DNA of 54,873 bases from assembly GCA_026710325.1 (NCBI GenBank), contig JAPORH010000012.1, positions 1 through 54,873 of the forward strand, read 5' to 3'. The number at the start of each line of letters is the position of its first letter. Position 1 is the stretch's first letter. Shown in pieces: positions 52,999 through 54,873 of the stretch. Origin of the DNA: Litoreibacter sp. (GTDB lineage: Bacteria > Pseudomonadota > Alphaproteobacteria > Rhodobacterales > Rhodobacteraceae). A model generated the notes under the pieces. The model was given only the letters and a program-made list of their open reading frames with translations. It was not told the origin of the DNA and searched no databases. The position numbers and the translations under genes are program-made.

Positions 52999-54693
52999 TC
53001 AGTAATGCGCCGAAAGGCTCGCCATGCCGGTTGCCTTGGGCGGAGCAAACTTGGTCAAGTCGATGCCGTCAACCGCCTCTTTGTATTCGTCCAACGTCGG
53101 CGTGCGGCCAAGGATCGCTGAAAGCACAACAACAGGGGTTGAGCCCAAAAGGGATTCACCCTTCTTCGTCTCGCTATCGGCAACCACACGCCCTTGGAAC
53201 AGGCGGGTGGACGTGGCCAAGACCGTGTCGCCTTTGGCGGCCTTCTCCTGATTGCCCATACACAGGTTGCAGCCCGGGCGTTCGAGGTAGAGGATGTTCT
53301 CGTACTCGGTCCGCGCCGCAACCTTGGGGGCGCTGTCGTCGAACTCGAACCCGGAGTATTTCTGCAGGACTTCCCAGTCGCCCTCCTCCTTCAGCTCATC
53401 GATGATGTTGTAGGTTGGTGCAGCCACCACCAGCGGCGCTTTGAACTTAACTTCACCATGCGCCTTCTCGAGGTTGCGCAACATCTGCGCCACGATCTTT
53501 ACGTCCCCTTTATGCACCATGCAGGAGCCGACAAAGCCCAGGTCAACTTCCTTCTCCGCTTTGTAGAAGGAGATTGGCCGGATCGTGTCATGGGTGTAGC
53601 GCTTGGAAACATCTGCGTTGTGCACATCCGGGTCCGCAATCATCGGCTCGTTGATCGCGTCGAGATCGACAACGACCTCCGCCACATATTTCGCGGTCTC
53701 ATCAGGCGCGAGCGCTGGCTTTTCGCCAGAGCGAATTTCCGCGATGCGCTTGTCGGCGATATCGATCAGCCCTTGCAGCATCTGCACATCGTTATCCATG
53801 CCCTTGTCGATCATGATCTGGATGCGCGCCTTGGCGATTTCCAGCGACCCGATCAGTGTCTCATCGTTGGAAACACAGATCGAGGCTTTCGCCTTCATCT
53901 CCGCCGTCCAATCGGTGAAGGTGAAGGCCTGGTCAGCCAAGAGGGTGCCGATATGAACCTCGATGATACGGCCTTGGAAGACGTTGTCCCCGAACTGGTC
54001 CAGCATCTGCGCCTGCGTCGCATGCACCACGTCGCGGAAATCCATGTGATCGGCCATCTCACCCTTGAAGGTGACTTTGACGCTTTCGGGGATCGGCATA
54101 GTCGCTTCCCCTGTGGCAAGCGCCAAAGCGACGGTGCCGCTATCTGCACCAAAGGCCACGCCCTTGGACATCCGCGTATGGCTGTCGCCGCCAATGATAA
54201 TGGCCCAGTCATCCACCGTGATGTCGTTCAGTACCTTGTGAATAACATCCGTCATCGAATGATAGACGCCTTTGGGGTCGCGCGCCGTGATCAGCCCAAA
54301 TTTGTGCATGAATGCCATAAGGCGCGGCGTGTTGGCTTGTGCTTTCGCGTCCCAGACGGAAGCCGTGTGGCAGCCAGACTGATAAGCGCCATCGACGGAA
54401 GGCGACAACACGGTCGCGGCCATTGCCTCCAGTTCCTGGCTAGTCATCAGCCCGGTCGTGTCCTGCGAGCCCACGATGTTGACTTTGACGCGAACATCAG
54501 AGCCCGCATGCAGCACCTTGCCCGGCGTCGTGCCGCGCGCATTGGCGTTGAAGATTTTCTCCACCGCGGTCAGGCCTTGGCCTTCATGGCTGATCTCTTT
54601 GGAGGGCGCGAATGCTGATTTAAGTTCAATACCCAAGGTCTCGCAGGCAAATGTCTGAAGTTTTTTGCCAAAGACAATCGCGTAGGAGCCCCC
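52999..54693 (-). pseudogene. acnB: aconitate hydratase B, 3' part of a gene cut by an insertion sequence
   Basis: AcnB interconverts citrate and isocitrate, and also hydrates 2-methylaconitate (2-methylisocitrate dehydratase). This fragment of about 564 codons covers the C-terminal three-fifths: GGSYAIVFGKKLQTFACE at the left edge of homology, then SHEGQGLTAVEK, VGSQDTTGLM, SGCHTAS, IIGGDSHTRMSKG and LERPGCNLCMGNQ. The three Fe-S cysteines appear to be kept (GCHTAS, C-x2-C). The homology stops abruptly at about 54693, where the frame runs into IS sequence with an in-frame TAA. A TTG at 54636 could begin a truncated product, but it would lack the N-terminal domains. The missing N-terminal part probably lies past the IS, outside the window. 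Confidence 0.88.
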
Positions 54694-54873
54694 CGGGTTG
54701 TGTCTCGAAAGTGGTGGAAATTATTCCATGGCGTCTCCGAGCGGCTTATTGTTTGGCTTTGTTATGCTGCGAGGTCAAGGATTTCGTTGAGCGGCTGATC
54801 GAGGGTTTCCCAGCCATTGACCTTGCGCATCTGGATTTGGCCCGATGCCATCAATGCCCAGAACAGCATTGGC
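54694..54873 (-). mobile_element. end of an insertion sequence interrupting acnB (partial)
   Basis: The sequence from GGGTTGTGTCTCGAAAGTGG (about 54695 on) is unrelated to AcnB and probably includes the terminal inverted repeat. About 70 bases inside lies the stop of a coding frame on the minus strand, entering from the window edge. The other end and any target-site duplication are outside the window. Confidence 0.8.
54762..54873 (-). CDS. transposase, C-terminal 36 residues (partial)
   Basis: The frame reads PMLFWALMASGQIQMRKVNG and then WETLDQPLNEILDLAA before TAA 54762-54764. Endings of the form ASGQIxMRKVDGWxTL are familiar from transposases of alphaproteobacterial insertion sequences, possibly the IS256 group, but I cannot fix the family from 36 residues. 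The rest of the gene is outside the window. Confidence 0.6.
   Translation of the reverse strand, partial: PMLFWALMASGQIQMRKVNGWETLDQPLNEILDLAA

What the first reader, a model, noticed from the sequence alone, without database searches (positions are those of the whole stretch)
52999..54873. acnB is interrupted by an insertion sequence
AcnB homology is continuous from the stop up to the codons for GGSYAIVF and ends at about 54693. Beyond that, a terminal-repeat-like sequence and a transposase C terminus follow. The gene lacks its first two-fifths here. AcnB is often the main aconitase and also serves the 2-methylcitrate route, so loss would make the cell depend on AcnA or on the PccAB-Mcm route encoded in the same window. 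The insertion may be recent, since the remaining frame is intact.
Basis: partly seen in the sequence, partly recalled or inferred. Interest (0 to 1): 0.72.

Follow-up and report, generated by a model that had tools for sequence, protein, structure and literature searches.

The report
Accessory aconitase gene split by IS256-family element
A common type of jumping DNA has landed inside a spare aconitase gene of a bacterium, leaving the two halves of the gene on separate assembly pieces; the other aconitase gene is intact, so this looks like an ordinary and probably recent gene disruption.

Summary
The window is one whole contig (C53) of a 240-contig draft and ends inside a repeated IS256-family element. 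acnB runs from 52999 to 54695; the IS occupies 54696-54873. The missing N-terminal two-fifths lies on a 3,039-bp contig (C208:260-1387) next to the other end of the same kind of element. The flanks share an exact 8-bp target duplication (CGGGGGGC), and without the IS they read in frame through FMRAGG|SYAIVFG, as in relatives. This fits one simple IS insertion; both halves look undecayed, so it is probably recent.

The physiological reading is weakened. An intact AcnA is present. In the genus, 18 of 18 genomes at least 90% complete have an AcnA-sized frame, while 2 of 21 have AcnB; in the family, 71 of 395 sampled genomes have the AcnB N-terminal domain. PrpB above its curated cut-off is found in 0 of 21 (prpC was not searched). 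AcnB is thus an accessory second aconitase here, and its loss leaves the strain as most of its genus already is. Ordinary finding. Not settled: proof from reads, whether some cells keep an intact copy, and the name of the organism.

The parts
52999..54695 (-). C-terminal three-fifths of acnB, one open frame, ending at the IS
54688..54695 (.). 8-bp target site duplication (CGGGGGGC in gene orientation), present again at C208:260-267 beside the other IS end
54696..54873 (-). right end of an IS256-family element: terminal inverted repeat, and the last 36 codons plus stop of the transposase on the minus strand (36 codons at 54765-54872); the contig ends inside the element

Best explanation
An IS256-family insertion sequence (about 1.4 kb, judged from a related complete element) transposed into acnB between the codons for FMRAGG and SYAIVFG, inside the Pfam domain Aconitase_2_N, and duplicated 8 bp of target. 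The gene is left as two pieces: an N-terminal piece that runs 9 codons into the IS before a stop (shown), and a C-terminal piece without its native start (shown). No functional AcnB is expected (inferred). The assembly broke at the multi-copy IS, so the pieces are on different contigs, C208 and C53. AcnB is a patchily distributed second aconitase in this genus. The intact AcnA is expected to carry the TCA cycle, and propionyl-CoA is expected to go through the carboxylase and mutase genes in the window, so the loss is probably tolerated (both inferred from gene content).
For: One copy of each acnB half was found in the genome: the C-half on C53, the N-half on C208. C208 begins with 259 bp of IS left end and then the N-half. 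An exact 8-bp repeat links C208 to C53; 3 of 10 left ends have an 8/8 partner among 20 right ends, against a mean of 0.055 pairs when the letters of each 8-mer are shuffled. The flanks, without the IS, read in frame as QKLEFMRAGGSYAIVFG; at that place 46 of 80 aligned relatives have GGSYAI and the other 34 close variants. The two IS ends agree at 23 of their first 29 positions as inverted repeats and encode the N and C termini of an IS256-type transposase. A 1,392-bp relative on a Sulfitobacter plasmid has the same order of ends and is flanked by an 8-bp repeat. The halves depart from the relatives at 1 of 396 invariant columns. AcnA is intact. AcnB is in 2 of 21 genus genomes.
Against: No contig spans the insertion and no reads were available. 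The interior of the element was not recovered: the one Transposase_mut match in the genome is a fragment on C191. 7 of 10 left ends found no 8-bp partner; the right-end search scored 40 of 66 candidates, so partners may have been missed. The N half is rather more diverged relative to the C half than in most relatives (ratio 1.66, higher than 75 of 80 controls, inside their range of 1.28-1.75). The 8-bp repeat in the Sulfitobacter relative can also be read with 9 bp or shifted by one base. A mixed population with an intact allele cannot be excluded.
Confidence: 0.93

Rival explanations
1. The junction is an assembly artefact: unrelated contigs were extended into a repeated IS and acnB is intact in the cell.
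For: Draft of 240 contigs; 17 of the 20 reported copies of this IS end run to the same inner base of the query, and 19 of 20 touch a contig end; no reads could be examined.
Against: Two junctions (C53 and C208) meet the IS at the same acnB point with an exact 8-bp duplication and the expected orientation of IS ends; no uninterrupted copy of either half was found in the assembly.
Confidence: 0.04
2. The population (or a metagenome bin, if this is one) is mixed: some cells carry the intact gene and some the insertion.
For: Not testable without reads; the frames are undecayed, so the event may be very recent.
Against: No contig with an uninterrupted acnB was found; contamination is given as 0.29%.
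Confidence: 0.05
3. The two fragments are still expressed and assemble into a working two-piece aconitase, in the manner of the two-subunit isopropylmalate isomerases.
For: The motifs GSCMVH and CNLCMGN stay on the C-terminal piece and GSSRM on the N-terminal piece; their roles as Fe-S ligands and active-site loop are recalled, not tested. Both pieces are undecayed.
Against: The break is inside Aconitase_2_N: profile positions 2-165 of 204 on C208 and 163-204 on C53, not at a domain boundary. A consensus scan of 54400-54873 found no sigma-70-type promoter (other promoter types not covered). The first ATG, GTG or TTG in the C piece is a TTG at 54636, about 60 bases into what is left, with no ribosome site that I could see (by eye).
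Confidence: 0.02

Closest known systems
IS256-family insertion sequences (IS256, ISCth4, and copies in Rhodobacterales plasmids such as the ISPko2-like element)
   Same: Element ends, transposase termini, imperfect terminal inverted repeats and an 8-bp target duplication. ISCth4, an IS256-family member, is flanked by 8-bp duplications (PMC7780238, passages read).
   Different: The target here is G+C-rich (CGGGGGGC), whereas A/T-rich 8-bp targets are described for ISCth4 and IS256; the related Sulfitobacter copy is also flanked by a G+C-rich repeat (GGGCGGGC).
AcnB, bifunctional aconitate hydratase 2/2-methylisocitrate dehydratase (NF006690, TIGR00117; structure 1L5J)
   Same: The halves match consecutive parts of model NF006690: 1-334 and 332-827 of 852.
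   Different: Disrupted here. The 81 other acnB loci that I translated (80 and G016) show no break at this point (one of them, L063, is cut by its contig end before the start). Of 71 family genomes with the N domain, 70 have it in a frame of 808 aa or more and this genome in one of 410.

Membership tests
IS256 family | Transposase related to IS256-family (mutator-type DDE) transposases | tested here: met
   Only the termini are present. They resemble by eye the N and C ends of WP_322345894.1, annotated as IS256 family transposase. DNA of the two ends matches 21 and 18 plasmid records; an IS256-type transposase is named under 12 of the 20 rows listed and 11 of 18, at 69.5-82.9% identity over all rows listed. 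Against: the two short peptides alone gave no Pfam match.
IS256 family | DDE catalytic residues (named for ISCth4 in PMC7780238) | not testable with these tools
   The interior of this copy is not in the assembly (one search found one transposase fragment, on C191).
IS256 family | Imperfect terminal inverted repeats | tested here: met
   23 of the first 29 positions agree between the ends.
IS256 family | Target duplication of about 8 bp | tested here: met
   8 of 8 bp at acnB; also C198/C217 and C77/C90; 7 of 10 left ends found no partner. 8 bp for ISCth4 and IS256 is from passages of PMC7780238.
AcnB (the interrupted gene) | Aconitase_B_N and Aconitase_2_N domains followed by the aconitase domain | tested here: met
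   Aconitase_B_N and most of Aconitase_2_N on C208; the rest of Aconitase_2_N and Aconitase on C53. The short Aconitase_2_N remainder scores 27.3 bits and 25.0, around the cut-off of 27.
AcnB (the interrupted gene) | One continuous reading frame of about 930 aa | tested here: not met
   A 385-aa ORF on C208 and a 573-aa open frame on C53, separated by the IS.

The most novel reading that the evidence does not exclude
The insertion created a natural split aconitase whose two pieces (N-terminal domain plus most of the mobile domain; catalytic domains) are still made and work together, an accidental step toward a two-subunit enzyme.
Probability: 0.02. Interest if true: 0.6.

Novelty: new member of a known kind. 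Interest (0 to 1): 0.14.

Why it matters
It is one more case of an abundant insertion sequence knocking out a gene that most of the genus lacks. Its use is practical: it explains where and why the contig ends, tells annotators that the acnB fragments on C53 and C208 belong to one interrupted gene, and cautions against inferring a metabolic change, since an intact AcnA is present.

Tried and rejected
Looked for a second, intact acnB in this genome: none found (one search agrees, since matches of AcnB strength to Pfam Aconitase, about 165-175 bits, appear in G000 and G016 only). Looked for decay of the halves: inside the range of relatives, though near its upper end for the N half. Looked for an outward promoter at the IS end: none by a sigma-70 consensus scan. 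Literature: 'acnB', 'insertion sequence' and 'IS256' together gave 0 papers; 'aconitase', 'alphaproteobacteria', '2-methylcitrate' and 'acnB' gave 0; 'aconitase', 'acnB', 'acnA', 'Rhodobacter' gave 5, seen as a listing only, none by title on this; led to PMC7780238, of which I saw passages, on insertion sequences and pseudogenes in Roseobacter relatives, was seen as a listing only. The far end of C208 was compared with all loci held (last 139 bases) and with plasmids (last 100 bases) without a match other than itself. Plasmid records matching the IS ends belong to Paracoccus, Sulfitobacter, Cereibacter, Haematobacter, Limimaricola and Pseudorhodobacter (13 of 21 and 18 of 18), and also to Bradyrhizobium, Roseomonas and Microvirga; a Rhodobacterales host is inferred from this, no more.

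Origin of acnB, only partly pursued. In a FastTree tree the halves pair with L055, an uncultured alphaproteobacterium (support 0.84), lie at the shortest distance from L051, and fall in a group of 12 (support 0.904) that leaves out G016, the other genus member with acnB (21st nearest of 80). In one search, apart from acnB and frames overlapping it, matches above 40% identity between the 81 loci and this genome's C53 and C208 ORFs occurred in 8 of 81 loci, all to window ORFs about 7 kb or more from acnB, none to its neighbours; weaker matches were not printed and flanks reach 5 kb at most in the 80 loci. Separate gain or movement of acnB is possible.

Full report
What is there. The window is the whole of contig C53 (54,873 bp) of a draft genome of 4,185,406 bases in 240 contigs, 99.75% complete. 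The minus-strand frame that ends at 52999 is the C-terminal part of AcnB: NCBIfam PRK09238 positions 332-827 of 852, Pfam Aconitase 2-463 of 463 plus the last 42 positions of Aconitase_2_N, and E. coli AcnB 1L5J from residue 341. acnB sequence ends at 54695. From 54696 to the end of the window lies one end of an insertion sequence that was reported at 20 places in the genome, this one included; 40 of 66 candidates were scored, so this is a lower bound. 19 of the 20 touch a contig end.

The other half. The AcnB N-terminal domain (PF11791) has one match in the genome, at C208:878-1348, on a contig of 3,039 bp; Aconitase_2_N is divided between C208 and C53. C208 starts with 259 bp of IS sequence, followed by acnB codons up to the start of the gene. 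That IS end was reported at 10 places, 3 of them over 28 bases only. The ORF on C208 is 385 aa, of which 376 are AcnB and the last 9 lie in the IS. So the first two-fifths of the gene is present but separated.

Evidence that both belong to one insertion. The 8 bp next to the IS are CGGGGGGC on both sides. Among 10 left ends and 20 right ends, three left ends have an exact 8-bp partner (C208/C53, C198/C217, C77/C90), against a mean of 0.055 pairs from shuffled letters; seven have none among the ends examined. Laid side by side without the element, the flanks read QKLEFMRAGGSYAIVFG in frame. At the same place 46 of 80 aligned relatives have GGSYAI, 18 GSSYAI, 13 GGSYAV, 2 GGAYGI and 1 GSSYAV (L063 was dropped before that count, being cut by its contig end at 605 aa). 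In one search, 72 of 81 loci have a recognised start and at least 900 aa in one frame. In the other nine the script's start pattern was not found: seven have uncut frames of 928-1000 aa, and two are cut by a contig end (901 and 605 aa). In all 81 the frame runs through the place of insertion.

The element. Its two ends agree at 23 of 29 positions as inverted repeats. They encode the N-terminal 52 residues (start codon at C208:158) and the C-terminal 36 residues of a transposase. Both resemble by eye the ends of a 409-aa IS256-family transposase of Sulfitobacter sp. OXR-159, whose element of 1,392 bp has both ends in the same order and orientation and is flanked by an 8-bp repeat, readable also as 9 bp or one base over. 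ISCth4, of the IS256 family, is flanked by 8-bp duplications (PMC7780238, passages read). The interior is missing from this assembly, as expected when a multi-copy repeat is collapsed: the one Transposase_mut match is a fragment on C191.

Age. Of 396 columns invariant in the 80 relatives the halves depart at one. The divergence of the N half relative to the C half is 1.66; the relatives, each tested in the same way, range from 1.28 to 1.75, and 75 of 80 are lower. There is no stop or frameshift in either half other than at the IS.

Meaning for the cell. AcnA is intact on C74 (896 aa, TIGR01341 1330.7 bits, cut-off 945). In the genus an AcnA-sized frame (907-1101 aa) matches in 18 of 18 genomes at least 90% complete, this one included; I judge these by length and score, and tested only this genome's against NCBIfam. 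Of the three less complete genomes, G011 has a partial match in a 542-aa frame, G012 a fragment in a 173-aa frame, and G009 none of that kind. AcnB is found in 2 of 21 genomes, this one and G016. In the family, the AcnB N domain is in 71 of 395 genomes (sampled evenly, completeness at least 90%), 66 of 351 genera; among the 71, this genome alone has it in a short frame, 410 aa against 808 or more. PrpB over its curated cut-off is in 0 of 21 genus genomes and in 4 of 14 control genomes; this genome's best is 81.1 bits against 354.4, and two genus mates reach 295.4 (G009) and 239.9 (G007). prpC was not searched. Methylmalonyl-CoA mutase (1258.7 bits, cut-off 876) lies in the window with two carboxylase subunits; the latter score best against methylmalonyl-CoA decarboxylase alpha (780.9, below its cut-off of 998.8) and acetyl-CoA carboxylase biotin carboxylase (631.2, cut-off 597), so calling them propionyl-CoA carboxylase rests on arrangement and recall. 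The loss of AcnB leaves this strain as most of its genus already is.

Limits. No reads were available, so a mixed population or a mis-joined contig is not excluded formally. That AcnB is dispensable rests on gene content, not on a test.

Noticed in passing
L028 (C208):2323-3039: A CheA-like frame beside acnB (Hpt domain found) seems, by eye, to change character in its last roughly 70 bases before the contig end, as if cheA too were cut by an insertion or a misassembly; no match for the end was found in the loci held or in plasmids.
   Followed up: partly
L032 (C191:2000-3211) and C191:3112-3493: A different transposase-like frame (Tn3-type, named from recall) lies close to a partial copy of this IS end and to the one Transposase_mut fragment found in the genome, suggesting nested mobile elements.
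   Followed up: no
L126 (G016:C1:1460000-1479000) and window 52999-54695: The two genus members with acnB carry it beside different genes, and their acnB sequences are not nearest neighbours in the tree: acnB may have been gained separately.
   Followed up: partly
G013:C3:353237-354661 and G019:C1:3377614-3379035: Two genus members have a second long aconitase-family frame (868 and 897 aa) besides the AcnA-sized one; what kind was not tested.
   Followed up: no
window 54577-54779: Four terminator-like sites on the + strand (antisense to acnB), against 0.4 expected from shuffles, two of them inside the IS end.
   Followed up: no
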